From contig OY987249.1 of assembly GCA_963920765.1 (NCBI GenBank), positions 19,626,483 through 19,690,482 of the forward strand: DNA of 64,000 nt, written 5' to 3'. Each line of letters starts with the position of its first letter. The first letter of the stretch is position 1. Under the pieces are notes generated by a model. That model saw only the letters and a program-made list of their open reading frames with translations, was not told the origin of the DNA and made no database searches. The position numbers were made by a program, and so were the translations under genes. The DNA comes from Ulota crispa. Its lineage: Eukaryota; Streptophyta; Bryopsida; Orthotrichales; Orthotrichaceae. This document shows positions 5,791-48,864 of the stretch, one piece after another.

Positions 5791-5794
5791 TTAA

Positions 5795-6028
5795 CCCCTA
5801 ATGCACCAAGCAGCCCTTTGCGACCAATACAATATGGGGTATTTTTCTTGTATTTGGAATGCATTTGCATCTTTATTACAGTTGAGATCAACAAAGAAGT
5901 TAGAATATAGATCAATGTTGTTCTAGTGAGGTAGTCAAGATTCCAAATTAAAACTTTTTGTTGGTAGTAAATGCCAATTATACAGCACCGTTCATACTAC
6001 ATATTATAGTAGTTTGGTCCTTTCAAGG
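5795..6028 (+). mobile_element. TTAA-type MITE, copy A (234 bp)
   Basis: A 234-bp element flanked on both sides by TTAA (5791-5794 and 6029-6032). Its ends, read inwards, are CCCCTAATGCACCAAG and CCTTGAAAGGACCAA, an imperfect terminal inverted repeat. A second copy of identical length lies in opposite orientation at 43542-43775, about 85% identical by eye. No coding capacity, so non-autonomous. TTAA duplications with CCC ends fit piggyBac-type (or Sola3-type) transposition; the superfamily is an inference. Confidence 0.85.
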
Positions 6029-6032
6029 TTAA

Positions 6033-7748
6033 ATCCCCAAAATGTCACTTTGCTTAACAATCCATGTTTTTTTTTATAAGTAAAATAGCCTAGGAAAAAA
6101 AGAATTGTCTAGCTCTTATAAGTAATTGAAGAGTGCCCTAAAATAGGTCATTTGACCAAATTATATAATTATAGAGACCCTTTTATTCAGCCAAAAAAAC
6201 TAAATAGCCCCCTAAAATTTACCCACTTGCCGCACGTGGGGAAGAGTGATCCACCCAAGAATAAAGGTCACTCCTCATTTTGTAGAAGTGCATGACCCAA
6301 AAACCTTTGTCCAATCAAATGCTAATCTTAAAACTAAAATTTAAGAGATCAAGTATTCTAGAGTCCTAGACAAAAACTTGTAGTCCATTTCCTATAACTC
6401 TCTCATGTAATCAATACCTTACCACTTTTATAACTATTTACATATTTGAAAAGCTTAGAAAAAAGGTCAAATTGTACTAAAATTTAACATAAATCTAATT
6501 AGGAGAAGTATTAGGAAAAATAAACATTTGAAAAAAACATAAAGTCATGATTTAAATGCTTTTGAAATCACTAGAAGTTCATCAATGATTTACAACCAGT
6601 TTTTTCTCAATCTATCCTCAATGTATAGTACCCTAAAGAAAGAGTACACAAGTCCTTCCTTTGGGATTCAAAGAAGTTTGTACTATAAATAAATTAGTTT
6701 TTGGCAAAATAAACACATCATCATGTTTAAAGGTACAAACTTAATCACAATGTATGAGTCAAAAAATAATGAAAACTAATTTCTATAAAGAAATATATAT
6801 TTTAACTAAATTTGGTCATAATCACCCTAACATTAAAATCTCTATAGAAAAAAATTTGATTTTTTTTGGAAATGATTGTTTGAAACAAAGATGTGCAAAT
6901 GGATGTCTCCTACATATCCATGCAACCAAATCTCAAAAATTCATCACCAATGTTTCTTAATCTATTTTCTTGTGAAACCATGATTTTGACTCAAAACAAT
7001 TTACCAAAAATAGGATTTTGATTTTTAGTAACTCAAATTTGGTATGATTGATCATGACTGCACAAGGTTCACATACAAAAAGTCTAAGGATAAAATGCCA
7101 ATTGTATTCTTTGTTGTACCAACTTTTATGGATGCCATGAAAGAGACTTATGTACTCTTTCTTTTGGGTACTGTACAATAGGCTTGCTTGAGTTGAGACA
7201 ATTTCAAGTTCTAAAAGGGTTAAAAATCACAAAGATGTTGGTGATGTTGATAAAAGTTGATGAAAATGGCATTCTCATCTGTACAAAACTGCATTTACAT
7301 GGATTAAAAGCATGGATTAGGGATAATCTACTCTTCATAATTTTGAATCATTTTGTCCCCCTTACCAAGCTTCTCAAATATGTAATCATTTTTAGATTTG
7401 ATGAAGAATTGTGTGTATGAGAGGGGTTTGAGAGAGGACTATGACTTTTTGTCTGGGACTTTATCTTATTATAAGCTAGAAATTCAACATAAAATTTCAA
7501 AGTGGAAACTAGCAATTTCCAGGTATATAACCAAGAAAAATTAGTGTTTGAAATTTCTCAATTTAGAATAATGTTATGATTGTGGTAACCAGAAATAAAA
7601 TTTGAAATTACTTGGATATCCTTGGGTGTGATCAGCAATCCAAGTTCATTAAATTTGCCCTTGACTTTGACATGTAGATCTTACTCTTAAAAAACCCCTT
7701 TGATTTTTGAGTTTTATTAGAACTTATTAAGCAAAACAAAAAGTAGAT
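6033..7748. other. non-coding, AT-rich
   Basis: No supported gene. The short open frames here have AT-driven composition and no recognisable motif. Confidence 0.6.
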
Positions 7749-7752
7749 TTAA

Positions 7753-8291
7753 CCCCTAAATGCCCAAGGGGGTAAGGGCAAAACATAGATGCGTTATAAT
7801 TGATACTTTTGTAACTTTAATGAAGATTTCTTCAAAAGAGAAAACAAGAATCATGATCTTTAGTAATTATCAATATGGTCAAATATTCCAAAAAAGATTT
7901 GGACTCTTATTTAATGAATTTAGAATCATTTACCATTTAATATTCATCAAAATTACAAATTTCATTAATAGTATTTGAATTGTGGTATGATTGGTTAATA
8001 ATAGACATTCTATTCATGACTTCAAAAATGCAATCCTCTTGAAGGAGAGAACATCATTAGTTTTTTAAAATGGTAAATTTTGTAACACTAGCAAAAATTG
8101 AAGTGTTTGCCTTTGAAAAATTCTCCTTCATAAAGTCTAACTTGAATTGACATGATACAAATTGGGTTGGAAAGTAGACTTAATTTCCTATATAAATTTT
8201 ATTTTATTTTTTTCAAAAAATATTTTTTTAATTTTTGAGCAGCCTGCAAAAAGGGCAAAAACCAAAAAATGGTCAATTGGGCATTTAGGTG
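7753..8291. mobile_element. TTAA-type MITE, copy E (539 bp)
   Basis: Flanked by TTAA at 7749-7752 and 8292-8295. The inward-read ends are CCCCTAAATGCCCAAGG and CACCTAAATGCCCAATT, matching at 14 of the first 15 positions. The interior is AT-rich and non-coding. Its termini resemble those of the other TTAA elements in this window but the interior differs from copy A, so it is a separate subfamily. Confidence 0.8.
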
Positions 8292-8295
8292 TTAA

Positions 8296-9058
8296 GAAGG
8301 CTTCATAGAAATTCAAAAAAACATACACATATTCTAACTATTGAACTAAAGTATTTGAGTCAAATTTTGAAATTTTAAAGTGTCTATATTTTATCAAATG
8401 TTAAAAAAATTAGCACAAAAACAAAAGCTTTGAAATGAAGAAATTTTCCATTGAGCTCAATATTAGTTAGTTATTGGTTACAAAAAATAGATTAAAAACC
8501 AAATTTGAAAAACCAGAAATTTACATCTTCCTAGAATAGTAATCTCACATACTGTGGGATAACAAAAACGAGGTACCAAGTAATAGAGAAACTTATTTTG
8601 AATTTTCATATCTTCATGCCTTTTATGCGTGATAACTTCATTAAATACAACTCCTTAAAGTTGTTATAGTTTTCTTATTTTAAAAATTTATGACGTATTG
8701 AACTACTTTTGACATACTCATGTAATTATGAACTTGCTGTGTCCTCAAACATCTAGTGAACTCTTAATGTTTTGTATTCAATTTTTGATTTGGTTATATC
8801 TCTCTATATTTTACAAGCGTCTGTATATGTTTTACTAATATTTACAGTGCTTTGCAAACAAAAAGAGTCTCTTGATTAAAACTCTTGGATTTTGGATAGT
8901 CCATAAACAATTAAATATTGAAGGTTTCCTATAAAAGTTCAAAAAAAAAGTTACAAAGTTGAGAAGATACACAAAATTAGATTTTTGTGATTGAATTTCA
9001 AATCACATCTATATCATCAAATTTGTAGTTGCTATCACCAATGATGTGATTTTAAGAT
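8296..9058. other. non-coding, AT-rich
   Basis: Nothing recognised. Confidence 0.5.
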
Positions 9059-9066
9059 TTAAATTA

Positions 9067-9458
9067 GGGAATCACTATTGCAACACCCTAAATTGCTAAT
9101 AAGACACCCCATGTGAACATGAAATGTAATTTTTAATGCTGATTTTTTAATTTGGATCAAACACCTTTATGATCCTAAGGCTATAGTAAAAAAAATAAAA
9201 TACGTGTGCTTAAATTTGAAATTAAAAATATAGGACTTTTGAGTTACTTAAAGCAAACATACATCAAAAAATAGTATTGGTGCAATAATACTTCAACAAA
9301 AATTTGTATTTTTCATGATTTCTTTCAAGGAAGTGAAAACACCATGATTGAATGAATGATGAACCACTTGAATAAATCAAAAATAGCACTAAATGATCAA
9401 ATTTCATGCTCACAAGAGGTGTCCTGTTAACAATTTAAGATGTTGTTGTAGTAATTTC
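9067..9458. mobile_element. long-TIR element with 8-bp TSD, copy 1 (392 bp)
   Basis: Direct-orientation relative of 30605-31004, alignable along nearly its whole length. The ends form an inverted repeat of roughly 50 bp containing repeated ACACC / GGTGT motifs, more decayed at the right end. Flanks are TTAAATTA (9059-9066) and TTAAATTT (9459-9466), an 8-bp duplication with one mismatch. Non-coding. An 8-bp TSD suggests hAT; the long inverted repeats would suit a Mutator-like element. Unresolved. Confidence 0.8.
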
Positions 9459-9466
9459 TTAAATTT

Positions 9467-19556: not shown

Positions 19557-19737
19557 TGTAAGAAACAAGGCCGAGTATCTTCTTGTCTTATGCTAGTGCT
19601 ACAACTAATACTACTTACAGTGATAAACTGCCTTTTATTCTAAGTCTCTGTGACCTAAAACACTAACGAAAACATGGATGATAAAGGCTGGATGAAACCC
19701 TAACTCATCCTTTGACATTAGTTGATACATTCCAATA
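19557..19737 (-). repeat. 3' LTR of copia element (181 bp)
   Basis: Same length as the 5' LTR. On the minus strand the terminal TGTTGG has decayed to TATTGG. A purine-rich tract (GAAGAGGGG) abuts it on the internal side at about 19739-19747. Confidence 0.95.
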
Positions 19738-19880
19738 GCCCCTCTTCAACCGATAGACACGTGGAAGTCTTTAGTTCTTCCTTTGTTTGTTGTTGCTTCT
19801 GCGTTGCATCTTCTGAGCTCTTGCTTGTTGGGAGGCTTGGTCTTTTTAATCCTTGTTGTCTGAGTGATCTCGCTTTGAAG

Positions 19881-20384
19881 ATGGCTTTAATTTGTGAGCA
19901 ACAAGGGGTCAAAGATCGTATTGCAGGCGTCTCAATCTTTCGATTGGTGGCTGTTCTTCTGGTGATATTTTTCTTAGTCTTGGGGTGCCAATGTGAGTCC
20001 TTGTCCAATTGGATTGATCATTTGTGGTGTGAATCAAAGACTTCTATGGCGGACGAAGGTTTTGATGACAATGTGTACCCCAAAATTGTCTTGGCTGGTG
20101 CGTGTTCCACTTCAAATAGGACAGTTGCCAATCGGAGAGACCAGGAGTAGATAGAGGTTGTAGAGCTGGGGTTACAAAGCAAGAGCGTGGAATTAGGGTT
20201 GAGGAGCAAATTAGGAGAACCAAAGTCAAGATTTTATGTAGTCCAAAGGGGTAGGAAACCTGGCTTGTATTTTTTGTGGCTGGACGCGTCTAAACAAGTG
20301 AACGGTTTTAGTGGGGCTGTACACCAAAGCTTTCAGTCGTTAAAGGAGGCTAAACGGTATCTCTTTGAGGATATTTTAGGTTAG
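19881..20384 (+). pseudogene. antisense ORF in the copia element with an RNase H1/viroplasmin-type domain
   Basis: On the + strand, opposite to the retrotransposon, between the end of pol and the 3' LTR. One reading frame runs from the ATG at 19881 to a stop at 20382-20384, interrupted once by TAG at 20148-20150. The N-terminal half has a membrane-type hydrophobic segment (VAVLLVIFFLVLGC). The C-terminal third (about 20225-20384) has RFYVVQRGRKPGLYF, QVNGFSGA and SFQSLKEAKRYL, matching the RNase H1 hybrid-binding / caulimovirus viroplasmin domain. Family members bind RNA-DNA hybrids or form virus inclusion bodies. Whether it is a captured host fragment or an element-encoded accessory protein is open. 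One stop makes this copy a likely pseudogene. Confidence 0.6.
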
Positions 20385-20424
20385 TCCTACGGCAGTTAGG
20401 GTTTGGTTACTATAAGCTAATATG

Positions 20425-21234
20425 CTAGCGGGATAGCAGTTGAGCTAGACTTTGGAGACCTAAAGTTGCACAATGTTCCTTGAATTTCAACCTGCCAAGC
20501 TGCTTTGTCAAGGCATCTGCGGGTTGAGACTTTGTGTTGATATAATCTAATTCTATTTCTCCTTTCAAGACTTTTTCTCTCACAAAATGATAGTGGATCT
20601 CTATATGTTTCAAATGAGCATGAAATACTGGGTTGTGTGACATTTTGATTGCAGCCTGGTTGTTACAAAATATTTTCACAGGGTGTTGCATTTTTGTGTC
20701 AAAAGTCGAGGCTTGTTTGCTTGGCTGTGGTAGCAATACTTCAAGTTCCAAAAGCAGTCGACAGAGCCACACCGCCTCTTGAGTCCCATCTCTAAAGGAT
20801 CGGTATTCAAACTCTGTGGAAGATCTAGAAACGGTCAATTGTTTTTTTGTCTGGCAGCTCACGGGTCCTCCCGCTAAGGTGAATACATATGCCCCTATTG
20901 ATCTTTGTGTTTCAGAGCTTGAATCCCAATCAGTGTCCGTGAACCCTAAAATTTGAAATAGTGCGTTTTTGTTGTAATGGATTTTATAATCTAGGGTTCC
21001 CTGTAAATACCTTAGGATGTGCTTAATGGCTTCTAGGTGAGCTTGTTGTGGATTTGACATGTAACTGCTGACTTTATTCACGGCAAATGCTATGTCAGGT
21101 CTAGTCACTGCCAAAAACATTAACTTTCCCACCAGTTTGTAGTATTTTGTTGAGTCCACGTAAGGAGAGTTCATATTGGTTTGCAATACGTGTCCCTCCG
21201 GTAGTGGCAATGGAACTGGCTTGCAGGTGTCCAT
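20425..21234 (-). CDS. copia RNase H domain, still open (269 aa)
   Basis: C-terminal pol region of the copia element, open over 269 codons. It contains TRPDIAFAV and the RNase H motifs GFTDTDWDSS (where GYSDADWAG is usual), TVSRSSTEFEY and CNNQAAIKMSHN, and ends after the ADALTK motif. It is not an independent gene, and upstream pol is dead. It is the best-preserved part of the element. Confidence 0.9.
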   Translation of the reverse strand: MDTCKPVPLPLPEGHVLQTNMNSPYVDSTKYYKLVGKLMFLAVTRPDIAFAVNKVSSYMSNPQQAHLEAIKHILRYLQGTLDYKIHYNKNALFQILGFTDTDWDSSSETQRSIGAYVFTLAGGPVSCQTKKQLTVSRSSTEFEYRSFRDGTQEAVWLCRLLLELEVLLPQPSKQASTFDTKMQHPVKIFCNNQAAIKMSHNPVFHAHLKHIEIHYHFVREKVLKGEIELDYINTKSQPADALTKQLGRLKFKEHCATLGLQSLAQLLSR

Positions 21235-21239
21235 CCCAG

Positions 21240-21970
21240 ATTGCTGCAGAATGGCTGTTGTATATGGTTTCTAGTGCAAGAATGTTCTGGTTGGGAGATC
21301 CTTGAAAGAAATGCCTAGGTATCGTTTTACTCTTCCCAGGTTGGTCATCTCAAACTGGGTGTGTAAAAACGCCTTTAGCTAGATAATGAGCTCTAGTGAA
21401 CTACCAGTAATAAAAAGGTCATCAACATAAAGCATTAAAATCAACGTTTCTCTTTTTTTGTGCGTGTAATATAGATTTGCATCAAACGTGCTTCTTTCTA
21501 ACCCTAGGTTTGTGAGAGCTGTGTCAATTCTCTCATACCAAGCCCTCAAGCTTTGCTTGAGTCATTAGAGAGACCGATTTAGTTTGCAAACCAGTTGCTG
21601 TTGAAGTTTGATTTCAAAGCCGGGAGGTTGTTGCATATAGACTTGCTCTTTTAGGATTCCATTCAAAAAAGCTGTCCTAACGTCCATATAATGAATGTCC
21701 CAACCCTTTGTTCCTGCAATGGCAATTGCGGTACGGATTGTTGCCCACTTTATTACAAGAGCAAAAATCTCAATGAAATCTATTCAGAATTTTTGTTCAA
21801 ATCCCCTCACGACCAAACGTGCTTTCTTCCTCTTAGGTAATCCGTTAACTCCTGGCTTAAGTTTAAACACCCATTTGCACGTAATTGTCTTTTTTCCGTA
21901 AGGGAAGGTATCAATAGACCAAGTGTCGTTCTTCTTTATACTGTCCATTTCCTCTTGCTATGCAAGAGGC
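21240..21970 (-). pseudogene. copia reverse transcriptase remnant
   Basis: No long open frame remains, but the catalytic box reads LYVDDLFI, with YVDD at 21418-21429 (minus). Flanking motifs are recognisable across broken frames. This RT cannot be active. Confidence 0.85.
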
Positions 21971-22746
21971 TAGCCAGAGTCGCTGTTTGCTTGTTGGAAA
22001 GTTATTGGTTCATCTTGGTTGTGTGTTATTGGTTTAGGTTTTTCCAATGCTGTGGTGATCAAACAGCAGTCAAAGTCATCGACCAATACATAGAGATTGT
22101 ACTCGTCTAACCTAACGTTCTGTTTACGGGATCTCTCTGAGCATCTAGGTTGCAAGGGAGGGTTTGAGTTAGTCGGTTCTTGGATTATTGGTGGTGCCGT
22201 GTTTGTTGGAGAGCTTGGCGTGTTTGGCAAGAGTAAATCCGGTTCAAGGAGGTCGTTGGAAGCATTTGGATATTGTTGCAAGTCAGCTGGCGATAGTGGT
22301 ACGGGAGCCGGGATAGGTGGGACTAGAGTTTGTTTCTATTGTAAAAAATGATTGTGTAAGGGTTTGGTCGTCTTTGTCAATTTAAGGTCAAAATTTGACT
22401 CATCGAAGCGCACGTCCCTATTGATGATGATGGTTTAGGTCACCGGGTTATAACACCAATATGCTTTGCTACTTTCATCGTAGCCTATGAAAAGAGTTGG
22501 GATAGATTTTTGATCAAATTTTCTCCTCTTAATGTTGAGGATGTGACAATAAGCAATACACCCAATTACACATAGATGACTAAGTGTAGGCTTAATCCCT
22601 GTATATGCCTCTTCTGGAGTAATTGCCTGTAGGGCTTTTGTTGGGGACTTGTTTTGGATGTAATTGACAATTTTGGCTGACTCTTGCTATAGATGCTTAG
22701 GTATTTGTGTGCCAGCAACAATCGTCTAAATCCCTTCCAGAACCGT

Positions 22747-23800
22747 TCAATTTTTTCTCTCTGCCACCCCATTTTGGTGGGGAGAATATCTAGCTATCAA
22801 TTGCCTATGGATGCTGTGGAGCTGACAATAATCTATGAAATCTTGAGAGAGGTACTCTCCTCCTCTATCACTACGTATGGTTTTCATCTTATGAGGGCCT
22901 TCAACTTGTAATCTGAACTGTTTGAAGCAAGTCAAAGTTTGTGATTTCTCTGCCAAGAAATATAACCAAGTCTTTTGAGTATAATCATCAATAAAGGTCA
23001 ATATGTATCGAGATCTGGTTTTTGAGGAAACCGGCATTGGACTGCATATGTCACTATGTATCAATTCAAGTGGCTGGTAGTTCATTGTTGTCTTTTGCTT
23101 GGGTTTTATGTCCCGAGGCATTTTGCCTAGCATACATGAGCTATATACATGCTTTATGAGAGGAATCGAGGGAGTACTTGCCACTAACGCACGTGAAGTC
23201 ATATGGTAGAGGGATTGAAAATTAATATGTCCAATTCACTTGTGCCACCGTATAATCTCCTGTTGTGTTGGTATAGTGTTGACAATATTTGTAGTCGGAA
23301 TCGCTTGTGTGAGAGACAAAGATGTTGATCGTATTGAAGCGGCAATATGTATTGATGTAGGCTGGCTCAATGTTGTGGTTGTTACTCTATAGAGTTTGTT
23401 GTGTAAATCTCTTAAGCCTTTTAGTAAAATGTTGGGTAGAGTTGTCAATGTCATAAATATAGCAATATGTCAAGTCAAATAATATTTTGTATCCCAAATC
23501 AACAAATTTCCCCACCAAAAATAAGTTTGTCTTGACACGCGAGACATACAGAACGTCAGTCACCTCTTTTATTTCACCATGCATATCTGAGGTCTTTAGA
23601 ATGCCCTTTCCGGCTACCTTCATAAGTTGACCACCAACAATCTTAATGTGGCCAGTAGGTGCCGGAGTGATGCTCGTAAGTAGAGTTGGGTTACTAGTTA
23701 CATATGATGATGCCCTTGAATCTAAAAACCAATCATCTTTGACGTTGTTGGATGTGATACAAGCATTGATTGTCTTGTAATTGGTGTTGTCATTGAACAC
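22747..23800 (-). pseudogene. copia protease and integrase remnant
   Basis: The protease motif appears as LDSRASSY at about 23720, where DSGAS is expected, so the catalytic-loop Gly is replaced by Arg. Integrase is open at 22747-23202 and keeps the three acidic positions: HSD, then TIRSDRGGEY, then GVAERKN. A frame break separates the two parts. Confidence 0.88.
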
Positions 23801-29300: not shown

Positions 29301-32167
29301 TTTTGCAAACAAAATGAGTATACTGATTGGTATTTTCTTTCACTAATGTGTTTGTATATAGCAGTGCCTCTTTAAGATGAACCTTTATAAGAAAAAAAGC
29401 TTAGCTAAGATGAAGGAAATGTAGCGGAGCTACAAAAGATGTGTTTGGTTACAATGAATGCTTTCCTTACATGAAATGAATATGCTGTTCAGATACCTTC
29501 ATCTTATCGAGGCACCACTATAGTGGTTTGAATCACTTAACATTTTAATTTTTTTTCATTTGAGTAGGTTTAGGAATCAAATTTCACCTCCAAATGTGTT
29601 TTTAGAAAAGTTTCAGCATTTATTTTTAGCACTAAAACATTATAATCTTCCAATCTATGTGGTCAAATGATCCCACATTTGATCCACATTATCTACAACA
29701 TGCACACTACAAGATTGTACGGTTGAGATTTTCATACTCCACTAGCATTGAGATTTACAAGACTTAAACACCAAGGATACCCCAAACCCTCTTTCGGCAT
29801 TAGGCGATGAGGGGTTAAGAATGGTTTCCAAGAAAATGTTATGTTCTGACGACTCCTTCACGGTTTTCCTTATATTTTTGGTTTACCTACATGCTTTTAG
29901 TATTAAAAAGTTTCAAAACACCAATAGTTTTTTTTTTTTTTCCATTCTTGATTTTTAATTTCATTGAAAATTTCTTGATTTTCAAAACCTTTTAGCTCTA
30001 TGAAATGGAATTACATGAGAATATCCTATCCTGCAAAGGAGATTTTGATACCTTAAATATTTCGACAAGGATAAGTTTTTAGTTCCTATTTTTAGGCTGG
30101 TTGTTTAAAATAATGAAATTTGCTTTTCCCTTTAGAACTTTCTAATCATATTTCGCAAACTGCTTTTACATTGTTGTGAAATAACAAAATGTTACTTGAA
30201 GACCTAACTTTCAACACTTTCAAGAACTATACAGAGCAATTTTGTTCAAAGCCGCCTTGGGAAAAGGCCAAAAACTACTAAGCTATAATAAATACTAGAT
30301 TGGTTAACTTGTTAACACCCTACGATATTTTGCAATTTATAAGTTTGTAAATTATATCACTCGGAATATATATATAGCTTAACCATGTTTATTTTCCTGT
30401 ATTTCGATTTTATATAATAAGAAACTAAGCAAAATTCTTTCTATTTGAATTACTCATTCTCGTAATCTTCTATATAAGAGCTCTCAACAAACTTATAAAC
30501 AACTATAGCTTATGTTACACTACATACCACAGACTGCAATTGTTGTAGTCCTCATCATGAAACGTTGATCCATATTAGCAAATGATTCTACATATAAAGT
30601 TTTAAGAATTGCTAACGCAACACCCTAACTTGTTAATGGGACACCTCTTGTGAGCATGAAATGTGATTTTTAATGCTGAATTTTTTATTTGCATCAAGAA
30701 ATTTGTTTTACCTTTATCATTCTAAGACTATATTTAAAAAAAAATAGGTGTGCTTAAATTTGAAATTAAAAATATAGGACTTTTGAGTTACTTACAGCAA
30801 AAATACATCAAAAAATAGTATAAGTGCAATAATATTTCAACAAAAATTTATATTTGTCATGTTTTCTTTCAAGGAGGTGGTAATGCCATGATTGAATGAA
30901 TGATGGATCACTTGAATAAATCAAAATAGCACTAAACTATCAAATTCCATGCTCACAAGGGGTGTCCCATTAACAATTTAGGGTGTCCCGTTAGCAATTC
31001 CTTGAAGTTTTATAGCCACTATCGTCTTAATCTATAATTGATTTGTGGGCACCGCACCACTTTCCTTTGAAAATTAACAAACCTTTGGATTCCACAAGTT
31101 TGCACTAAAGACTACAAGGACATCCTCCAAGAGATTAAAAGGAGCTAGTGAAACCCAAAAACACCATATTTGTTAATTTGGGAAAAACAAGTGTCCTACT
31201 TTGTACTCCAACTCAAATCCAAAAAGTTACCTTAAACTAGATTCAAAGGTATCATATTCAATTTGAGCCACTAAAAATTTTTCCCTTGTAAATGCCTCCT
31301 CTCAAGACACGTGTACAAAAAAAACGTTGTGAGCTAGGTTTGAGGAGACCTCAAACTCACCTCAAAATTTGAAAGTCCCAAAATGTATGGTTTTTCCCAA
31401 ATTAACAAATACGGTGATCAAAGTTTAGAACACGTTACACGTGCCCTCACCTGAGAGGAGAAATTTGCGAGAGAAAAAATCTTAGTGGCTCAAACTGAAT
31501 CTGATAACTTCAAATCTGACTTAAGGTAACTTTTTGGGTTTAAGGTGGAGTACAAAATGGTACCTCTATTTTTCCTCATTTAACGAATATGGTATTTTAG
31601 ATTTAACTGTCCTAGATTTTATTTTATAAACACATATGTTAACGTATAAAATGTAGCAATAAATTAGAAATCCATCCAAATTTTAAGTCAGAATTACTTC
31701 CAATGGACATACGTAATTTCATTGCATTTATTTATTGACAAAAGGTGTCTAATTCTGATAAGAGGAATGATATAACTTAAGTGATAAATACATTTCAGCC
31801 TTCTTTTGCTCCTTAAGAAATTATTTTAGAAAGGGTTGAATGATATTCAAGACTTCGTTGCAGGTTCTAAGACCCAAACAACAATGAACTTTATACAACA
31901 ACCTTTGAGACTGCCATTTGATAACAAAAACATACCAAGTCAAAGACACAACAAACAAAATAGTACGTTACAAAGCTCGACCACTGTAGAATGTCCAGTA
32001 AACAACGCAACAGCAACGATAGAGGTTTATGGTATAGAGGAGAAACCTGATGCCAGCTCCGAAATTGCTTTCAGGTTATGAAAAGCATGAGCTCTTCTCG
32101 TCCTTTTCTTCATTAATGCTGTATTCTGTTATTTTGCTCCGATTGCAGGCATCGTGGCAATAATTAA
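26365..32167 (+). CDS. 3' part of an unrecognised spliced gene (three exons)
   Basis: Three blocks with matching splice signals and phases: 26365-26483 (acceptor after a T-rich tract ending ctag, donor GTGAGA), 31864-32074 (acceptor tgcag, donor GTTATG) and 32149-32167 ending in TAA. The first leaves one base and the second two, and the joined frame is open to the stop. It reads SAARLCGRPILEKVHAWS and later NNATATIEVYGIEEKP, then FRHRGNN. I recognise no family. AATAAA at 32247-32252 could be its poly(A) signal. The first intron would be about 5.4 kb and is filled with MITEs. Upstream exons were not found; the copia element lies in that direction. The gene model is an inference. Confidence 0.4.
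26484..28676. other. non-coding; inside the large intron of the + strand model
   Basis: No repeat with clear ends. A minus-strand open stretch at 27283-27510 was considered and not accepted. Confidence 0.4.
28681..29814. mobile_element. TTAA-type element, copy F (1134 bp)
   Basis: Flanked by TTAA at 28677-28680 and 29815-29818. Inward-read ends are CCCCTTATTGCCTAAGG and CCCCTCATCGCCTAATG, 12 of the first 14 positions matching. It is the longest TTAA element here. It has no transposase-like open frame and carries a nested smaller inverted-repeat element at 29357-29522. Confidence 0.78.
29357..29522. mobile_element. small inverted-repeat element nested in the TTAA element (166 bp)
   Basis: Ends read inwards as TATAGCAGTGCCTC and TATAGTGGTGCCTC, with pairing continuing imperfectly through an AAGATGAA motif. 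It lies wholly inside the 28681-29814 element and therefore inserted later. Target duplication not clear. Confidence 0.65.
29819..30596. other. non-coding, AT-rich
   Basis: Nothing recognised. Confidence 0.5.
30605..31004. mobile_element. long-TIR element with 8-bp TSD, copy 2 (400 bp)
   Basis: Flanked by a perfect 8-bp duplication AAGTTTTA (30597-30604 and 31005-31012). Inverted ends of about 54 bp run from GAATTGCTAACG through ACACCCTAA and TTGTTAATGGGACACC to a GTGAGCATG motif. Direct-orientation relative of 9067-9458. Non-coding. Confidence 0.88.
31162..31416. mobile_element. GGGAAAA-TIR MITE, copy 2 (255 bp)
   Basis: Ends CACCATATTTGTTAATTTGG and CACCGTATTTGTTAATTTGG (inward) differ at one position and both continue GAAAA. 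The interior shares the CACGTGTA block and other segments with the copies near 25.5, 36.1 and 37.3 kb. Confidence 0.85.
31425..31594. mobile_element. GGGAAAA-TIR MITE, truncated copy in opposite orientation
   Basis: Directly follows the copy ending at 31416 and matches the same interior (TCTTAGTGGCTCAAACTGAA block) in the other orientation. It keeps only its right terminus (GAATATGGTAT). Confidence 0.7.
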
Positions 32168-35933: not shown

Positions 35934-36176
35934 AACCCCATATTCATTAAATTGTGATTCCCAAACTGAACTTCACCTTAAACCCAAAAGGTTAACTTAA
36001 ACCAAATTCGAAGCTATCAAATTGGGTTTGACGCACTAAGATTTTTCCCTTGCAAATTCCTCCTCTCAGGTGAAGTCACGTGTACCCAAAAAAAACGTTG
36101 CAAACACGGTTTTAGGGGATCAACTAAAACCTTCAAAAGTCCCAAATTGTCCAAAAATTCCCAATTTAATGGTGTT
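35934..36176. mobile_element. GGGAAAA-TIR MITE inside an SDH exon (243 bp)
   Basis: Right end reads inwards AACACCATTAAATTGGGAA; left end AACCCCATATTCATTAAATT, with a short insertion relative to it. The interior carries the CACGTGTA and CTCCTCTCAGGTGA blocks typical of the family. On the minus strand the dehydrogenase reads STAVKAT on one side and RSGGSVSLVGM on the other, so the element sits within the codons joining these. Confidence 0.85.
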
Positions 36177-37188
36177 GTTGCCTTCACTGCAGTGCTCATG
36201 CTTTATGTCATCCCCAAGCAATCTATAGTAACATCGATATCTGCTCCCATTGCTTTTTGCAAAGCGTCCACCTCCGATTCCACATCCTGATAAACAACCG
36301 GCTCAAATCAAAAATCATCAATTTTTGTAGTTGAAGCTAAGTTCAATAATCTCTGATTTTGTATCATAAAGTGAACGAATAAGTTATTATAATTTGCGAA
36401 CAACCAAGCGCGTACCGCGTCATGCATGCATAAGTGTACACCAACACTCAGAGGCTCGCACATGGCTCCCTCCTCAAGCGACACATTCTGCGGTAGCTTG
36501 AAACACATATGTGCCGGATGAATCACCTGTTTATAATTCGACTCACGGCGCGGTTAGATCTCAAGCTTTCAATTTCTCCTGTCAAATATTGTGGGTATTT
36601 TCAGCAGCCTTTCACCATTTTTTGGTTCAAAAATGGAAACACGGCAAACGGGTGAGCTCTTGTAGTTTATTAGATTAAACCAAAAGATACGACGAACTAG
36701 ACCGATTTGGGAAGAAGCTTCTAGTATTTTACCATCGACTCCCGGAGTTCAACTTCCAGTAGTATATTATAAATTATCTACGGCAATTATTCGAGAGGTT
36801 AATTGAGTACAGATTTCAAGCATGCAGTCTTTCAGGAGTGGGTTCGACAAAGAAAGTAGAGTTGAGAGTGGTGAATCGAAGCTATAATGCAAAAAAATAC
36901 GGAGGTTTGAAGGTAGAGGATGCAGTGAGACTTACGTAATTAGCGAGGGATCCGTGGACTGGAGGAGTAGCGAAAAACTTCATGTCACTGCATAAGTTGT
37001 ACTGTCCGGACTTACAAAGCTTGCATTTGTTACAAGGAATGCCTTGCTCAAGAGCAACACGATCACCAACGGCCAGGCTCTTCACTCCCTTTCCAACTTC
37101 CTCAATGACGCCGGCACATTCGTGGCCGATAACCATCGGCTCTTTGACTTCAAAGTCCCCGCATCGCAAGTGCTGAGCGAATCGAAAA

Positions 37189-37432
37189 CGCCATAGTCAA
37201 TAATTTGGGAACTTCAAATTTGGGACTTCTGAAGGTTTAAGGTGATCACCTTAAACCCAGCTCTAGGTTTAAGCAACATTTTTTTGGGTAAGAGGAGGAG
37301 GAATTTGCTTTGGAAAAATCTTAGTGACTCAAACTGAATTTGATACCTTTAAATCTGGTTTAAGGTAACTTTTTGAGTTTAAGGTGAAGTTCAATTTGGG
37401 AATGGCGTTTTCCCAATTTAATAAATATGGCG
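37189..37432. mobile_element. GGGAAAA-TIR MITE in the second SDH intron (244 bp)
   Basis: Ends CGCCATAGTCAATAATTTGG and CGCCATATTTATTAAATTGG (inward). It lies within the intron between SDH exons 37562-37629 and 36936-37172. Same interior as copies at 25510 and 31425, including a palindrome around GGTGATCACC. Confidence 0.83.
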
Positions 37433-38775: not shown

Positions 38776-38778
38776 GGA

Positions 38779-39168
38779 ATTGATATGTGCACACCGGGGT
38801 TGATATTTGCACACCCCCTGTGAGTAAATTATTTCAACCATCAAAAAGCTGAATTTGAGAACTTTGAATTCAGATTTGAACTTAGAGACCCTTGATGAAC
38901 CATAAAAAGGGTTGTAATTGAACAATACCCAATGAAAAAGTTTAGCTAGGGAAAAAGTGTTATTTTTACTTTTGTTTGTAAAAAAAATAAGCTTTTTCCA
39001 TTGAGTGTTGTTCAATTGCAACCTTCTTATGGTTCTAAACAGAATCATAGTCTCTAAGTCCAAATTTGAATTCAAAATTCTCAAATTCAGCTTTGTGATA
39101 GTAGAAATCTATAATTAATTTACCCCATGGGATGTGCAAATATCAACCCCCGGTGTGCACATATCAAT
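38779..39168. mobile_element. foldback element (390 bp) with arms of about 180 bp
   Basis: Almost the whole element is an inverted repeat. Ends read inwards ATTGATATGTGCACACCGGG and the same with one extra G. Both arms contain TTGATATTTGCACA, CTGAATTTGAGAA, ACTTAGAGAC and an AACAAYACYCAATG motif before a short A/T-rich loop near 38960-38990. Its transcript would form a long hairpin. No convincing target duplication. Confidence 0.85.
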
Positions 39169-40170: not shown

Positions 40171-40666
40171 TAAATTTTTGGCCAAAATGTTTCAAATAGT
40201 TGCCAACTTTAAATGGCAATAACTCTTTTTTTGGCAAACAATAACTCCAACTTATTTTTGTAACTTTTATTGTAAGACCATTCTTGTTCTTAGTTACAAA
40301 GAGTTTCACAATTTTGAGGGTGCTATGGACACCTCATATGGTTGTTAGGTCTTTGGTTACTTTGGTTACTTTATATTGTCTTGCACCGTAGGTTTGAAAT
40401 TTAAGAGATTTGTACTTGATCAAAGCTTTGGTTTAAATACTTTTTACTTCTAATTTATTAGAATAGGACTGAATTTAGAGAGTTAATTTGTTAATGATTT
40501 TGAATCAAAGGTTTTGGATCATGATCCATAGATCATATTCATAAAATATGATCTACTGTTGTACTAGTCATAAAGACAAAACAATCTTCTTCTTCATAAA
40601 CCAGAAGAAGTCAAAACAAAACAAATTGAATTTCCAAAAAGTAATATTCAACCAGTCTCACATTAT

Positions 40667-41603
40667 CCCCTAAACGACTGTTTGTCCGTTTGGGGGACAA
40701 ATGGATTTCAGGCATGTACCTATGGTTAAACTATTATGTGCAACTTTTTGAAACTTTTATTGTAGGTGGGGAATTCAAAGATCTATGTGGGCATTTAATT
40801 TTCTTTTCATTTTGACATTTGATAAAGAAATTATGCATGATTTTATGAAAATTTGGGGAGGACTATCCGTCCAAGTAGCCCAAAAATTTCTTTAAAAATT
40901 ACATTTTTTGAATTTTGTTTTTTGAAATTGGTTCTATAGATTTTTTTATACACGAGAAGTTTTGAATCATTCAATTTCAATCAATGAGATGAAAGTTATG
41001 AGTTTTTATTTGCGGGTAGTTAGGGATTCTCTACTCTAAAATAAACTTGAAGTTCTTTATTTTACTCAATTTTCATTCTTTTGGAAAAAATAAATAAACC
41101 TAAGGAAGTAAATTGTTTATTACAACATTATAACTGTTAGGATTTGCATTTTTCATTTTAATAATTAAATTCTTAACAATTTAGTGATTTGACTCATTCT
41201 CTACTTCTTTTTACTTACTATTTTTTTCTCAAGGGTTATATAATTCCATTTGATTTGAAAATTCTCCCACATATAACTAACTTGATCTCTTACATGGGAA
41301 AAATAAACCTCGACTTTGCGTAGAGTAATTTTTTTAATATAAGAGTGGTCAAAGACTTCTGAAATTTTTGGACACCAAGGAAAAAAAAAAAATTGCACTT
41401 TAAATGTAAATATCTCACTCCTCTCCATCTAATTTGACTTTAATTTTTTCCACAAGTTCCTCTAGCAGTCCAGAGCAAGATCCAGAGCAAGATCCTACAG
41501 CTAGATTTTAAAAGAAACAAATTTTCCTACTTTTCTACTCATTCCCCCAGAAGTGGCAGTTATCAGTAACTTAACTTGAAAAAAAGGCTCAGTCCTTTAG
41601 GGG
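40667..41603. mobile_element. TTAA-type element with TTAT flanks, copy G (937 bp)
   Basis: Ends CCCCTAAACGACTG and CCCCTAAAGGACTG (inward) differ at one base. Flanks are TTAT at 40663-40666 and 41604-41607, not TTAA. The ends match copy B (CCCTTAAAGGACTGAGC), so it belongs to the same group. Non-coding interior. Confidence 0.75.
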
Positions 41604-42405
41604 TTATTTAGAGTACAAGAACAATAATTGGAGGTCGTTGTCAAGGAATCTCCATCACCAAAAGTCTCAAGAAGTGAGTTCCAGCAAAGTCCAACAATTG
41701 AAAAATCATTTTTGAAACATAAATTAAAACAATTAATGTTCAACGACAGTGACCAAGTGAGGCCCAGAATGAAAAAAAATTGAAACTTCAAGTCTTGACT
41801 TTCTCTTCACTTCCAGTATTTCCATTAACTTAGTATTACAGTTTCCAAGCCTTTATACCCAAGTAATCTTGTAAATGACCTGAGTTAGACTACCTTCTCA
41901 ACAGTCCTTACAATTCCCAACTACACAGAAACGCTTACTTTTCATAAACATTCATCAACTCCAGAATAACCTCCAAAAATCTCAATATACGATACCAACT
42001 AAATCAAAACATCAACATATCATTCTCATGTTTCAGTATTTGATGAAGTAATCTATAGCTACAACACGACCCACGGCAAAACACACCAAACTTGCAATTG
42101 CAATCATTTTAAAGAATCTTACAAAATCACAAAATCTTCAAAAACGAGGATGTGTTTCCACGAATACCATCCATACCAAGACCATCCTTTGAATCACAGG
42201 GAATTCCAGTCCTGGGCAGCTCACATGAGAAACTATGTAGCTCAACTCTAAGATCTGTGCAGGTCCTCAGCATGTACAAAAGCAGCAGCAGATGGGTTAC
42301 AAAGTACCTTAGTCATGACAATATCGCCAATGAAAGGAAAAACCACTTCTTAAAACCTCCAAATTTTCTATGGTAAAATACCACAAAATCCCTCCATTTG
42401 TGATC

Positions 42406-45400
42406 CTAGACCTTCCCGTCGACTTCTAAAACAACTTTACCACCTGCAGTCTTGCTATCCCTTGCTCGGTGAGCTTCTGCCGCCATCTCTAATGGAAACG
42501 TCTGCCCTACCGGTATTTTAAGCCGCCCATCGGCTGCAAGTCTGCAAATTTCTTCAAGGCCTTCTGCATCTGTTCGCATGATCGGCCACCAATATTCTGT
42601 ACATAATAAACCCAAACCTACGTTAACAATGACAATTGAAAAATCAACATTTCATGTAACCAACGCAGACAAAGCCCATTGAAAAATTAAAAAGCAGGTA
42701 TTACAAGGACTAGAGCAGCAGACAATGACTATAACTAAACAAGTGCGCTTGCAATGAGAAATCCATTTGCAGCCTTTTAATAATCAACAATGTTAGCAAT
42801 TACCAACAATTCTCTCAATGCAAGGTTATACAGCTTTCAAAGTGGTTGACTATCGCAAACAGCCCTCATTTGCAAGGCTTCAAGATTCTATTGCAAACTT
42901 TTTCTTTACAGTTACATTTAGACAAGATTTTTGCACCACAAGCACTTTGGGAACATCATGTGCAGTTATATTGAAAAGATTATTATTAGCTCTTGTCCGT
43001 TCAATGAAATAAAAAAGCTACTGAACTAGGGTTGTGATGCACTAACCAACTCCGTGTGATCGTGCATACTCCATCTGCTTCTGAACCAATGCAGCTGCTG
43101 CAGCAGCACCGCCCGCAAAGAGACCGTACTTATCAGTAAAGGTAACTGTTTGCCCCTGTAAACAAATACGAAGAAATTTTAAGCCGCACACTTTAGCATG
43201 TACTCCAGAAAACAACCGGAATCTGATTTCTCCAAAACATTCTGTAGCTCATAGAGCACAATGAAGTTTGAGTAACTAATACCAGAATGACATGTGTACC
43301 TGCAGAGTCATGTACTGTCCACCACGTCGCAGAAGGTTGATGCCAGCAACTTCTGTCTCTGTTATTCCAATGGTGTCCAAGACCACGTCAAAACGCTCTC
43401 GAAATTGATCCTTGAGATTCTGGGATCAGCAAAATTGCATTCCATAATTAGGATAGCCCATGAGCAAAAACGATAATACTCAAGTGAGGTTGCTCTTTTC
43501 TTTTCTATGTATGTGATCCTTGAAAAAATGTGAGAACTTAACCCTTAAAGGACTGAGCTACTATAATACATACTATGTACGCTGCTGTATAACTGGCACT
43601 TGCTACCAACAAAAAGTTCTAATTTGGGATCTTGACTACCTCACTAGAACAGTATTGATCTATATTTTAACTTCTATGTTGATCTCAAATGTAATAAAGG
43701 TGTGGATGCTCTCCAAATACAAGAAAAATACCCCGTATTGTACTAGTTGCAAAGGGCTGCTTGGTCGTTTAAGGGTTAAGCTGCACGAATAACAATGTCG
43801 CACATTGCGCTCTTGCTTAAACAAAGATGGTTATAAGCGCACATCCAGAGGTGAATTTTTTTATTATATCAATTGAAGTTCACCACTTCAGCTACTTGTT
43901 TTTCACATCTGCTCCTAAGCTCTATGACTTTTAGAACTGCAAAGGTGCTATTGTGGAGTAAAAATGTGACTCACGGGACAAGTGTAGTCAACGGCTTCCA
44001 CAGCGCCCGCTTCCTTCACTATCTCCATACTCGTCTTGCCACATGTGCAGGAAACATAGCACCCTGCAGCTTTGGCCAAAGCGATCCCAGCAAGGCCAAC
44101 TGCTCCTCCACCTCCCATAATCAGGACTTTCTGGCTGCAGTAACATTGCCAAGACATCAACAAAATTTATTAATAAACAGGTAAAGCTTCACAATATTCT
44201 CGGCCCATCAAACTGCAGTTTGAGAGCCCTCCCAACTTCTCAGGCAATTACACCAACCATTACCAAAAGTGAACCCTACGGAATCTTGCCTGAACTGTAC
44301 AGAACGCAAACACTAAAGCCTACACGTTGTGTTCAAGAACACCTACAATCAGCACTTTGAATTTCATAGTTTCTGTATAGAAAAGTGTCCAAAACAGACA
44401 TATACACTTGCGTCATACAAGCCTATTTCAATGGTTAACATAAGATCTAACAATAGAGACCATGGCTCACATGCTTGTTTGGACGCCTTAAGATGCACAT
44501 GCCTAAATTTCTTGCGAGAAAAGTAATACGGAAATTCAATAGATCTTTTTTAGAAGGAATATGTAAATACCCCTTGCGAATTTTTGCTGTGCTTCTCAAA
44601 GCTCTCCAGGCAGTAAGTGAAGCAAAAGGAATAGCAGCAGCCTCCTGCATGTTCATGAGAGGATTAGAATAGAACGCCTAAAAAAAATCATTTCGAGGCA
44701 GGTCTCTCACGATTTTGAAAAAAGTTGGAATAACATTTGACAGGTTTGTTTCACATACAGAGTGAGATAGTGATGCAGGCTTTGGAGCCAGTTGTTCTTC
44801 TCCGAGAATGGCGTAATCACTGTAAGTTCCACGAGTAGCCGTTGGATGTAATGCTCCAAACACTGGATCTCCCACACGAAAATGTCTCACATTGCTGCCT
44901 ACTGCCGTGACTTCACCACTCACATCCCGACCCAGCACAAGAGGCAAGAGTGGCTCAAATAATGACCGCCCGTACCCTTCCCTCATCTACAAGAAAAAAC
45001 ACAGGTAACTTGAGTTCAGTACAACATGTAAGTTATCTGCACTTCAAAAGGCTACCAATGTTAGGTCTATACAGCACTACCCCATCTGTAACATCCAAGC
45101 AATGGAGAGCTAATGAAATCACAAACCAAATACAAGCAGGTGCTCTAACAATACACTACATGGTATAAAATCATCAATCTGAGCAGCGCAGTTAAACTCA
45201 GGAGTTCCATATCAATCTACGGATCACGGTAACAAACACACAGAAAGTGGATTTCAATCCGGATGCTCAACAGTGATAAAGGAAAGCACTCCAAACAATG
45301 CTCATACTTCCTAGAAGTGAAAATAACCTAAAATCTGCAATAATGCAGGGTTTAGGGTTCAGGAAAAAAAGAGGTAAATTGAAAGCATACCCGTATATCC

Positions 45401-45916: not shown

Positions 45917-46637
45917 TTTGCTTATCCACACTAACGTCCCCTACTTTCTACTTCTGGCTCATTTCTGATTCACTTTCTTTAATTCCAACAAAATAGATAT
46001 CAAACCCTAATTCTTCCCCAATTGCTGCAACGACAACTGGTCTCCGAGTTCAGAATTCGATGAGCTCCATTTCGACTTGAAGCAGCTTCAATTCAGCAAC
46101 AAAACCATCCAATTGAACTCAGACTGCTGAATTCAGTCAATCTGTCAGTGTAGAACCGGAAAAAAGGAATAACGGAAATCCCAAGCTCCGAATCCGTGGA
46201 AATGGGATCCAAAATTCTGGTTAACTCTCAGTCACTGTGACAATTGCTGGATGGCCATAGCCGCTCCGAGTAGGCTCCCGTCACGGAGATGGTGAGGGAG
46301 TGCAAAGGAATGGAGAAGAAGTAGACGTGGCATTGTCACTGGATGCCACGTGGAGGGGTTGAGTCATTGGCAGTGATAGGATTTCAGTGTTGACGTCATG
46401 CAGGAGCCCTTTCACTAAAGTAACTTACGTCATACCACTTTGAGGTCAACATATCCACTATCATCCATATAATAAGCCATTTTCATCTATTTAAGAAGTC
46501 ATTATCATCCATTTAACTATGCTATCCTCATGTACCTGTAGTGTGTGTTTGAGCTTACAAATGCATGTAATGAACGAGGGCGGGTTTGAGTGCTAAGTGA
46601 TAATGTGTATAAGGTAACCGCACCCATACATGAGCGT
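45917..46637. other. upstream region of the RTN4IP1-like gene
   Basis: Presumed 5' UTR and promoter. No other gene seen. A GC-rich patch near 46250-46370 includes GCCACGTGG. Confidence 0.4.
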
Positions 46638-46641
46638 TTAA

Positions 46642-46963
46642 CCCCTAACCGTCCAAGAGGACAAAAATTGTCCTTTTCATGCCAAAAACACACCTCAAGG
46701 GTGAAAAACATATTTTTTTCAAATTTTTTTTAATGTCACAAATAGCTGCTTTCAATACCTTCATATTTTTAAAACACCAATTTGTAATGAGATGTACAAG
46801 GTCCTTGCTGCCCTTTTTGTGAGGGCAGGATACACTATTGACTTTTCCTTCTTTTAAGGAGAATATTATCTCTCTTGGAGACATGCCACAAGCTGTTCAC
46901 TGTCCATGAACAGTGCACATTCTCCTGGTTTGAGCCACGGGTTTAGGATCAGTCTTTTAAGGG
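46642..46963. mobile_element. TTAA-type MITE, copy C (322 bp)
   Basis: Flanked by TTAA at 46638-46641 and 46964-46967. Ends CCCCTAACCGTCCAAGAGG and CCCTTAAAAGACTGATCC (inward) share the group signature but pair imperfectly. Non-coding. Confidence 0.7.
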
Positions 46964-46967
46964 TTAA

Positions 46968-47852
46968 GGGCATTTAAGGGTTTAGGGTACTTCAGAGTCT
47001 TGGAAAATTCAGGATTTCTTTTGTAGGGTTAGCCTTTCAACAAGCTATCATGGAACGTAGTTTTTGTAGAAAAAAGTATTGTAGATTATTTTATATTAGA
47101 GGGCAAAGTTGCAGCTCATAGGTCCCTATCAATAGCTCTAAGTTACCCTTGAAGCTGCTTTGATGTGTTCCTATACATGTGCTTGACAATCCCAATCCCA
47201 ACCATCTCACAACAACTTAGCAATTGACATGTGGCAAGATTTTCTTGTGCAAGGGATATTCATTGCTCCACTTTGGGTTCACAATGAGTGGTGAACACCT
47301 CAAAAGTAGAACTACACTTTGGGGACTGCTCATGTATGAGTGTTGTTACCTTACTAGCGTTTTTTTTGGGCAATTTAAGGCTAAATTGCCTCAAAAAAAT
47401 GGTGAGCTTGAAGCCCATAGAAAAAAATGGGGGAAAAATTTCATAAAATGCCAAATTGCAATAACTAAAATTACATTGCAGCCTAGGCTTCCATAGAATT
47501 CTCACAAAACTAAAATTTGATGCCATCATATTAAAATTATCAATGAGGTATTGTCTAATCCAATTCCATGCAATAATTAAGTAATGTCAATGGTTTAATT
47601 TGAATATTTTCAAAAAAAGGCCAATGAACACTTTTTGCCTACTAAATATCCCATGGTGATGCAAAAATCCATGCATAGAGGCACCTTTGACTCCAACTAA
47701 AATAGGGATGAAGCCCACAAGCTACAAACCATTTTCAATAATGCCACGTAAGCATTGGTCAAAAAACCCAAAAAAAAATCTTGGTGTATACTTATCTAGT
47801 TATTTATAAATTTGAATCAATATTTGTAGAGATTACCATTAACATTGATATT
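46968..47852. other. non-coding
   Basis: No gene. The two overlapping open frames at 47224-47529 on opposite strands have no motif. Confidence 0.5.
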
Positions 47853-47856
47853 GATA

Positions 47857-48864
47857 AGGGAAAATATCAAAAATGTCCCTCAGTTCTTTCAAAATATCAA
47901 ATGTAACCCTATATTATTTGAAATATAAAAAATACCCTTGTTTTTGTGTAAGGATATCCATTGTATTCCTAGTTATCTTTGAAAACCTCTAATACCCTTA
48001 GTATTTTTGTACCTCTTGAGTGCAATTTTTTGTAAATATTGAGATGACAATGGAATTTACAAAAACTAGATGCAAGTTAACCCCTAAAGGACCAAAGAGC
48101 CCAATATGGCCAAATGGGGTTCCTGAAGGTGTAAAAGTAGACAAAAAAGGCATTGCATGCTCAAGTTTTGGTTTGCCACTCAAGTCCAAATGGAGCTAAA
48201 AGTCCAACAAAACCTTTGGGTCGGCTTGTTGTTCCTTGAGGCCTCTAGATTTTGCACCCAAACATTTGAATTTACTATTTTTAATATTCAAACTATTAGT
48301 GTAGTGTATACACTATATAGGTATTGTCTCGAGCATTGTGCATTGCATTGAGGATGGAGAAATTTTGGATAGGATGGGTTGGAAGCCCACACTCCCATGA
48401 ATAGGGGAGAAGGTTGATTTATAGTTGGGAATAGCATGACCGGTTTGGATTGCGTGAATACTTGTTCAAGTTTTTAAAAATTGAGGGAATATGTTGAAGG
48501 TTCCATATTGGAGGTATGCTAAATTTTCTTAGCAAGACGCGTAAGGGTTAATGTAAGTCAAATCTTGGAGGCAAGCTCTTGAAGCTTTGTACAGGGTTTT
48601 TGCATTTAAATTTATTGTGGCCAAAACCATTGCATTGATTGAACAACGTACTTTTTCTTATCAATGTCTTTGGTACAAATGTGACTTACAAAAATTACAA
48701 TAAAAAAGCACAAGAAAACTAAGGATATAAGATGTTTTCAAAAATAACTAGAGGTATTATTGATATTATTACAAAAAGCCAGGAGTATTTTTGATATTTC
48801 ATATAATCAAGGGGTATATTTTGATATTTTGAAAGAACTGAGTGGCATTTTTGATATTTTCCCT
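47857..48864. mobile_element. long-TIR element carrying a nested TTAA MITE (1008 bp)
   Basis: Inverted ends of over 100 bp begin AGGGAAAATATCAAAAATG and continue CTCAGTTCTTTCAAAATATC on both sides. The middle contains an independent TTAA-type element (48081-48547). Without it the host element is about 540 bp. Non-coding. Target duplication unclear. Confidence 0.82.
48081..48547. mobile_element. TTAA-type MITE, copy D (467 bp), nested
   Basis: Flanked by TTAA at 48077-48080 and 48548-48551. Ends CCCCTAAAGGACCAAAGAG and CCCTTACGCGTCTTGC (inward). The left end is close to the group consensus, the right end weaker. Sits inside the 47857-48864 element. Confidence 0.72.

What the first reader, a model, noticed from the sequence alone, without database searches (positions are those of the whole stretch)
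5791..48551. Seven elements with CCC(C/T)TAA ends between TTAA/TTAT duplications: a piggyBac- or Sola3-like MITE group in a plant
Elements at 5795, 7753, 28681, 40667, 43542, 46642 and 48081 share inward-read ends of the form CCC(C/T)TAA..G.C..A. Six are bounded by TTAA on both sides, the seventh by TTAT. Exact TTAA duplication with CCC termini is the mark of piggyBac (also Sola3) transposition. From memory, such elements are rarely described in land plants. Lengths of 234 to 1134 bp with no coding capacity imply an unseen autonomous partner.
Basis: partly seen in the sequence, partly recalled or inferred. Interest (0 to 1): 0.8.

Follow-up and report, generated by a model that had tools for sequence, protein, structure and literature searches.

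The report
PiggyBac MITEs in an apparent plant
The seven elements are short, cut-down copies of piggyBac jumping genes, a kind best known from animals, and the same genome, apparently a plant's, carries thousands more of their ends together with diverse and mostly broken piggyBac transposase genes that could once have moved them.

Summary
In detail: all seven elements are bounded by exact 4-bp repeats (six TTAA, one TTAT) with facing CCC-type ends. TTAACCCYTAANNGNC occurs 29,055 times in the 274.8-Mb host genome, reversed control 22; about 83% of excess CCCYTAANNGNC termini follow exact TTAA. For the four elements with a second full copy in hand (E1, E2, E4, E5), homology stops at the 4-bp repeat. 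The predicted partner exists: 120 matches to piggyBac transposase PF13843, 110 with stops. Matched TTAA-CCC ends surround the domain at 7 of 12 fetched loci (one doubtful), against 9 of 216 control placements. Catalytic aspartates are mostly kept; a cysteine cluster follows the domain in 23 of 30 loci; PDB piggyBac and piggyBat match. In two pairs of coding copies, C-to-T differences concentrate at CG and CHG sites, as plant methylation would cause. Host not identified and the main empty-site search never ran, because the genome tool stopped answering. These are piggyBac MITEs; nothing supports Sola3, which was not searched for directly. The surprise is scale and diversity in an apparent plant.

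The parts
5791..6032 (.). E1: 234-bp element with its two TTAA repeats; same family as E5 in the opposite orientation
   Evidence: homology to the L008 copy covers exactly the element plus TTAA on both sides
7749..8295 (.). E2: 539-bp element with TTAA repeats, CCCCTAAATGCC-type ends (right end CACCTAAATGCC)
   Evidence: homology to the L049 copy stops at TTAA on both sides; end type shared with transposase element L045
28677..29818 (.). E3: 1134-bp element with TTAA repeats, ends CCCCTTATTGCC and CCCCTCATCGCC
   Evidence: left end resembles the left end of transposase element L039 beyond the terminal 12 bp (p=0.005 against shuffles; right end p=0.259); no second full copy in hand
40663..41607 (.). 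E4: 937-bp element with TTAT repeats on both sides
   Evidence: homology to the TTAA-flanked L007 copy covers the element and the 4-bp repeats bar the last base; right end resembles that of transposase locus L046 (p=0.005; left end p=0.532)
43538..43779 (.). E5: 234-bp element with TTAA repeats; second copy of the E1 family
46638..46967 (.). E6: 322-bp element with TTAA repeats
   Evidence: window 46610-46673 at its left edge is an empty site for a similar element in L045; no second full copy in hand
48077..48551. E7: 467-bp element with TTAA repeats, inside another inverted-repeat element (47857-48864); its right end departs most from the end motif (3 mismatches)
   Evidence: no second copy in hand; planned empty-site search did not complete

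Best explanation
The seven elements are non-autonomous piggyBac elements (MITEs). A piggyBac transposase with a DDD catalytic core, encoded elsewhere in the same genome by full-length elements of about 5 to 7.5 kb, bound their CCC-type ends, cut them out next to TTAA and joined them into new TTAA (rarely TTAT) sites, which became the flanking repeats. Shown here: exact TTAA bounds, matched ends, thousands of termini genome-wide, homology that stops at TTAA, piggyBac transposase genes between matching TTAA-CCC ends, and mostly conserved catalytic residues. Inferred: that these transposases moved these MITEs (shared end sequence only), that cutting was seamless, and that methylation silenced the family. 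110 of 120 transposase matches contain stops, and in the two pairs of copies compared the change is largely C-to-T at CG and CHG sites, so the family looks old and largely silent; one fetched copy (L042) has stop-free exon-like stretches and both ends.
For: TTAACCCYTAANNGNC 29,055 hits against 22 control; CCCYTAANNGNC 36,066 against 1,282, so about 83% of the excess termini follow exact TTAA. In 273,556 bases of window and transposase loci, 18 of 24 termini follow TTAA and 1 TTAT. Homology between copies stops at the 4-bp repeat in 4 of 4 comparisons, two of them to the same copy. PF13843: 120 matches, some being parts of one gene, best E 1.3e-73. Matched ends around the domain in 7 of 12 loci against 9 of 216 control placements; manual reading 6 of 12. 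L039 and L018, 90% identical, lose homology one base past the right-hand TTAA. DDD: aspartate at 31, 26 and 29 of 34 aligned rows. Cysteine cluster after the domain in 23 of 30 loci, 1 of 30 antisense. PDB: 6x67 E 3.6e-20 and 9c0f E 1.4e-16 with one protein; 1.4e-50 (9c0f) and 3.8e-42 (6x67) with the profile. MITE ends resemble autonomous ends beyond the first 12 bp: E3-L039, E4-L046, E2-L045.
Against: In one search, 8 of 14 MITE ends match an autonomous end at p of 0.03 or less, uncorrected for 14 tests, and 6 do not; partners are not assigned for E1, E5, E6 and E7. Five of 12 fetched transposase loci lack a matched pair at 5 mismatches or fewer. L041's pair is doubtful, and L039's best-scoring pair there is formed by flanking MITEs, its own pair having 4 mismatches. 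The 216 control placements overlap and come from one 64-kb window, and the 12 loci were not chosen at random. Only one empty site was found, 84% over 64 bp, from 194 candidate pairings. The cysteine pattern was loosened after a stricter one found 0 of 30, and no Pfam zinc-finger model fits above its cut-off in the 8 of 20 pieces tried. The only finished structure model was too poor to use.
Confidence: 0.95

Rival explanations
1. A Sola3 or Kolobok group (other TTAA-duplicating superfamilies, recalled) made the MITEs, and the piggyBac genes are unrelated residents.
For: TTAA duplication alone does not separate these superfamilies (recalled).
Against: Transposases lying between the same kind of ends are PF13843 piggyBac; end similarity to MITEs extends past the terminal 12 bp for several.
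Confidence: 0.02
2. The MITEs are moved across families by several piggyBac lineages rather than each by its own parent.
For: Seven transposase groups at 45% linkage among 36 pieces, with end types that differ only in a few positions of CCCYTNNNNGNC in most cases.
Against: Some MITE ends match one autonomous end distinctly better than the others (E3-L039, score 41 against 28 for the next).
Confidence: 0.4
3. A chance or low-complexity artefact: TTAA-CCC motifs paired by eye in AT-rich DNA.
For: TTAA makes up 0.6% of 4-mers in the window.
Against: 29,055 against 22 in the genome; full-length copies elsewhere ending at TTAA; 0 of 1,080 placements on five mononucleotide shuffles of the window give a pair.
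Confidence: 0.005

Closest known systems
piggyBac superfamily (PDB 6x67/6x68, recalled as Trichoplusia ni piggyBac; piggyBat, PDB 9c0f)
   Same: TTAA target, CCC-type ends, PF13843 catalytic domain with DDD, cysteine-rich stretch after it; sequence matches.
   Different: Elements of 5.0 to 7.5 kb here, and at least one gene appears split by introns (L042); the host appears to be a plant; seven divergent groups among 36 pieces; short MITE derivatives dominate by number of termini.
piggyBac-type MITEs and Looper-like elements of animal genomes (recalled)
   Same: Short, non-coding, TTAA-flanked, CCCY ends, high copy.
   Different: End consensus here is CCCYTAARNGNC, with a plant-type methylation decay signature in two pairs of coding copies.
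PiggyBac annotated in plants (C-fern table, PMC6890710; MITE review, PMC10004981)
   Same: Reported presence of the superfamily in plants (passages seen).
   Different: C-fern: 1,230 fragments, 122,417 bp. Here there are 29,055 exact TTAA-bearing termini plus transposase genes with ends.
Sola3
   Same: TTAA duplication (recalled).
   Different: No Sola3 transposase was shown or searched for here; the enclosed transposases found are piggyBac.

Membership tests
piggyBac superfamily | Exact TTAA target-site duplication | tested here: met
   6 of 7 elements TTAA, 1 TTAT; about 83% of excess termini genome-wide follow TTAA; homology stops at the 4-bp repeat in 4 of 4 comparisons
piggyBac superfamily | Short terminal inverted repeats beginning CCC/CCY | tested here: met
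   12 of 14 window ends begin CCC; the six transposase elements with both ends read by eye all begin CCCC or CCCT at both ends
piggyBac superfamily | DDE_Tnp_1_7 (PF13843) transposase between such ends | tested here: met
   120 matches; matched ends at 7 of 12 fetched loci, one doubtful, against 9 of 216 control placements
piggyBac superfamily | DDD catalytic triad | tested here: met
   Aspartate in 31, 26 and 29 of 34 aligned rows; 13 of the 16 exceptions at these three positions are D to N
piggyBac superfamily | C-terminal cysteine-rich domain | tested here: inconclusive
   Cysteine/histidine pattern 180-253 bp after the domain in 23 of 30 loci, 1 of 30 antisense; a first, stricter pattern found 0 of 30; no Pfam model above its cut-off in the 8 of 20 stop-free pieces tried
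piggyBac superfamily | Seamless excision restoring one TTAA | tested here: inconclusive
   Excision itself not tested. One empty site with a single TTAA (window 46610-46673 against L045 9026-9271); the larger empty-site search did not complete
MITE | Short, non-coding, high-copy, paired ends | tested here: met
   234-1134 bp, no ORF of 120 aa or more; 29,055 termini in the genome
Sola3 | Sola3 transposase in full-length elements | not tested
   No Sola3 model was searched; the enclosed transposases found are piggyBac

The most novel reading that the evidence does not exclude
A land-plant lineage in which piggyBac is an old, native and dominant DNA-transposon superfamily: at least seven divergent transposase groups, upwards of ten thousand MITEs, silencing recorded as CG and CHG C-to-T decay, and at least one copy (L042) with stop-free exon-like stretches and both ends that might still be mobile or have been taken over by the host.
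Probability: 0.5. Interest if true: 0.7.

Novelty: new member of a known kind. Interest (0 to 1): 0.58.

Why it matters
piggyBac is described as widespread in animals, fungi and protists, with only occasional plant occurrences (PMC12732532, passages seen). A plant genome with tens of thousands of piggyBac ends and many transposase groups would show long residence in plants, give native plant piggyBac enzymes to test, and let one study how CG/CHG methylation retires a cut-and-paste family while its short derivatives pile up. The precise TTAA rule also makes each insertion a clean marker for dating and presence/absence work.

Tried and rejected
Sola3/Kolobok: not pursued once PF13843 genes were found between the same ends. 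Chance: rejected. First protein clustering and the first look at ends near the domain took 13 minus-strand loci on the wrong strand; superseded. A too-strict cysteine pattern found nothing and was replaced. Rfam (gathering threshold) and tRNA scans of the window found nothing. A tblastn of one transposase against phage records found nothing. A PDB comparison of the GH31 gene said nothing on the host (best: 9kz6 maltase-glucoamylase, then 3w37 alpha-glucosidase). Ten paper searches: among the papers listed, none has a title or abstract start on native piggyBac in mosses, liverworts or Sphagnum. The lists were cut for (20 of 68; 20 of 274; 8 of 22; 10 of 13), the library holds only open-licence papers, and I saw listings, or passages for nine papers, no whole text. 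In PMC10619864 (moss) the one 'piggybac' passage shown reads 'piggybacking'. A guess that the host is a moss could not be tested.
Full report
Observation. The strict CCC(C/T)TAA start is at 9 of 14 ends, the rest departing by one or two bases. E1 and E5 are one family, 87% identical over 224 bp. None of the 19 ORFs of 120 aa or more overlaps an element.

Scale. TTAACCCYTAANNGNC has 14,466 forward and 14,589 reverse hits in the 274.8-Mb genome, against 12 and 10 for the reversed pattern. Without TTAA the count is 36,066 against 1,282. After subtracting controls, 29,033 of 34,784 termini (83%) directly follow exact TTAA. If each element had two exact ends this would be about 14,500 elements; elements with one or no exact end would raise the number. 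In the window plus transposase loci (35 sources, 273,556 bases), 18 of 24 CCCYTAANNGNC termini follow TTAA and one TTAT; the reversed motif occurs 3 times; adjacent TTAA-bearing ends (up to 2 mismatches) 60 to 2,000 bases apart face each other 16 times, face away 15 times and point the same way 6 times. The seven elements sum to 3,867 of 64,000 bases here (lengths).

Boundaries. With 400 bp of flank on each side, alignments of E1 and E5 to L008, E2 to L049 and E4 to L007 run from the left 4-bp repeat to the right one and no further (4 of 4 comparisons, two to the same copy; the E4-L007 alignment stops one base before the end of the right repeat, where TTAT meets TTAA). For E3, E6 and E7 no second full copy was in hand. 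A search of 194 candidate pairings in held sequence for junction-spanning empty sites gave one: the element at L045 9026-9271 against window 46610-46673, 84% over 64 bp with a single TTAA. It sits at the left edge of E6, so one element seems to have used the TTAA at the edge of another.

Autonomous partner. PF13843 gave 120 matches in the same genome, best E 1.3e-73; 116 of 528 first-look candidates were scored, some matches are parts of one gene, 110 of 120 contain stops, and 0 of 14 control genomes matched. Thirty-six domain pieces (two loci counted as two pieces each) fall into 7 groups at 45% identity linkage. Aspartate stands at the three catalytic positions in 31, 26 and 29 of 34 aligned rows (which positions are catalytic is recalled from T. 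ni piggyBac). One 436-aa frame matches PDB 6x67 at 3.6e-20 and piggyBat 9c0f at 1.4e-16; a 34-row profile gives 1.4e-50 for 9c0f and 3.8e-42 for 6x67. A cysteine/histidine cluster of the form CxxC...C...CF..H follows the domain by 180-253 bp in 23 of 30 loci (1 of 30 antisense). That pattern was loosened after a stricter one found 0 of 30, and of 20 stop-free pieces the 8 given to Pfam matched no model above its cut-off (one sub-threshold B-box match).

Ends of the partner. Twelve loci of 9.9 kb were fetched, chosen for open frames, score or to span groups, not at random. By eye 6 of 12 have matched TTAA-CCC ends around the domain, 5.0 to 7.5 kb apart: L039, L042, L044, L045, L048, L050. By a fixed rule (TTAACCC both ends, 5 or fewer mismatches of 16) 7 of 12 pass against 9 of 216 overlapping control placements in the window and 0 of 1,080 on five shuffles; the seventh, L041, is doubtful, and for L039 the rule's best pair is formed by flanking MITEs. 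L040, L046 and L049 show one clear end; L043 and L047 show no convincing end. L045 ends in CCCCTAAATGCC on both sides, as does E2's left end. Beyond the first 12 bp, E3 resembles L039 (p=0.005), E4 L046 (p=0.005) and E2 L045 (p=0.010) against shuffles, uncorrected; 8 of 14 ends reach p of 0.03 or less and 6 do not.

Decay and host. L039/L018 differ by 328 transitions and 51 transversions, L044/L031 by 335 and 40. Per site, C-to-T differences in these two pairs are 22-26% at CG, 19-22% at CHG and 6% at CHH. That is the footprint expected of CG plus CHG methylation, a plant habit (recalled), and unlike animal CG-only decay (recalled). Stops fall at columns whose commonest residue is Q, R or W in 63 of 118 cases. 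MITE pairs show a lower ratio (transitions to transversions 24:10, 96:85, 53:51), which I do not explain; greater age is one possibility. The window also holds a GH31 alpha-glucosidase and a Band-7 (prohibitin-like) gene. The species was not identified; the whole-genome search did not complete from then on.

An intact-looking copy. L042 (G000 C1) has stop-free stretches 2691-3335, 4250-4741 and 5012-5938 in two frames, as if split by introns, and ends at 111 and 7605. It may be an intact element or a host-adopted gene; expression was not tested.

Literature. PMC12732532 (passages) says piggyBac has occasional occurrences in plants, e.g. red algae. PMC6890710 (passage) tabulates 1,230 PiggyBac fragments, 122,417 bp, in C-fern. 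PMC10004981 (passage) lists PiggyBac among angiosperm MITE superfamilies, and PMC10794571 (passages) lists it among plant class II superfamilies. PMC8319324 (passage) reports one 75-bp hit in Stipa. None of the passages seen describes a plant system on this scale; the searches and their limits are listed under Tried and rejected.

Verdict. The elements are piggyBac MITEs; mechanism and family are well supported; what is unusual is the number and diversity in an apparent plant.

Noticed in passing
window 19557-25189: Copia-like LTR retrotransposon remnant (my reading of its ORFs) with short 179-bp LTRs that are 92% identical; Pfam matched nothing in the one ORF given.
   Followed up: partly
window 47857-48864: A separate inverted-repeat element with 45-nt, 96% complementary ends (AGGGAAAATATCAAAAA) that hosts E7.
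   Followed up: partly
window 38794-39153: Short inverted-repeat element with an 8-bp repeat TGTGCACA and CCGGGG ends; 8 bp is a hAT-like duplication size (recalled).
   Followed up: no
window 25590-25763, 31158-31598, 35937-37431: Repeat family with inverted arms of 80-147 nt and CCATATT-like ends, several copies in the window.
   Followed up: no
window 9055-9466 and 30596-31010: Two copies of another repeat, 80-91% alike over its parts, with inverted arms.
   Followed up: no
window 60298-60678: ORF with an EF-hand-associated domain (PF08356, E 2e-30), probably part of a MIRO GTPase gene (recalled).
   Followed up: no
L042 2691-5938: piggyBac transposase with stop-free exon-like stretches and both ends 7.5 kb apart: possibly intact or host-adopted.
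   Followed up: partly
L039, L018, L044, L031: Two pairs of coding piggyBac copies diverge mainly by transitions, concentrated at CG and CHG sites.
   Followed up: yes
G000 C7:18203169-18204302 and C7:18223004-18224137: Two transposase matches with identical score and stops in opposite orientation 20 kb apart, as in an inverted duplication.
   Followed up: no
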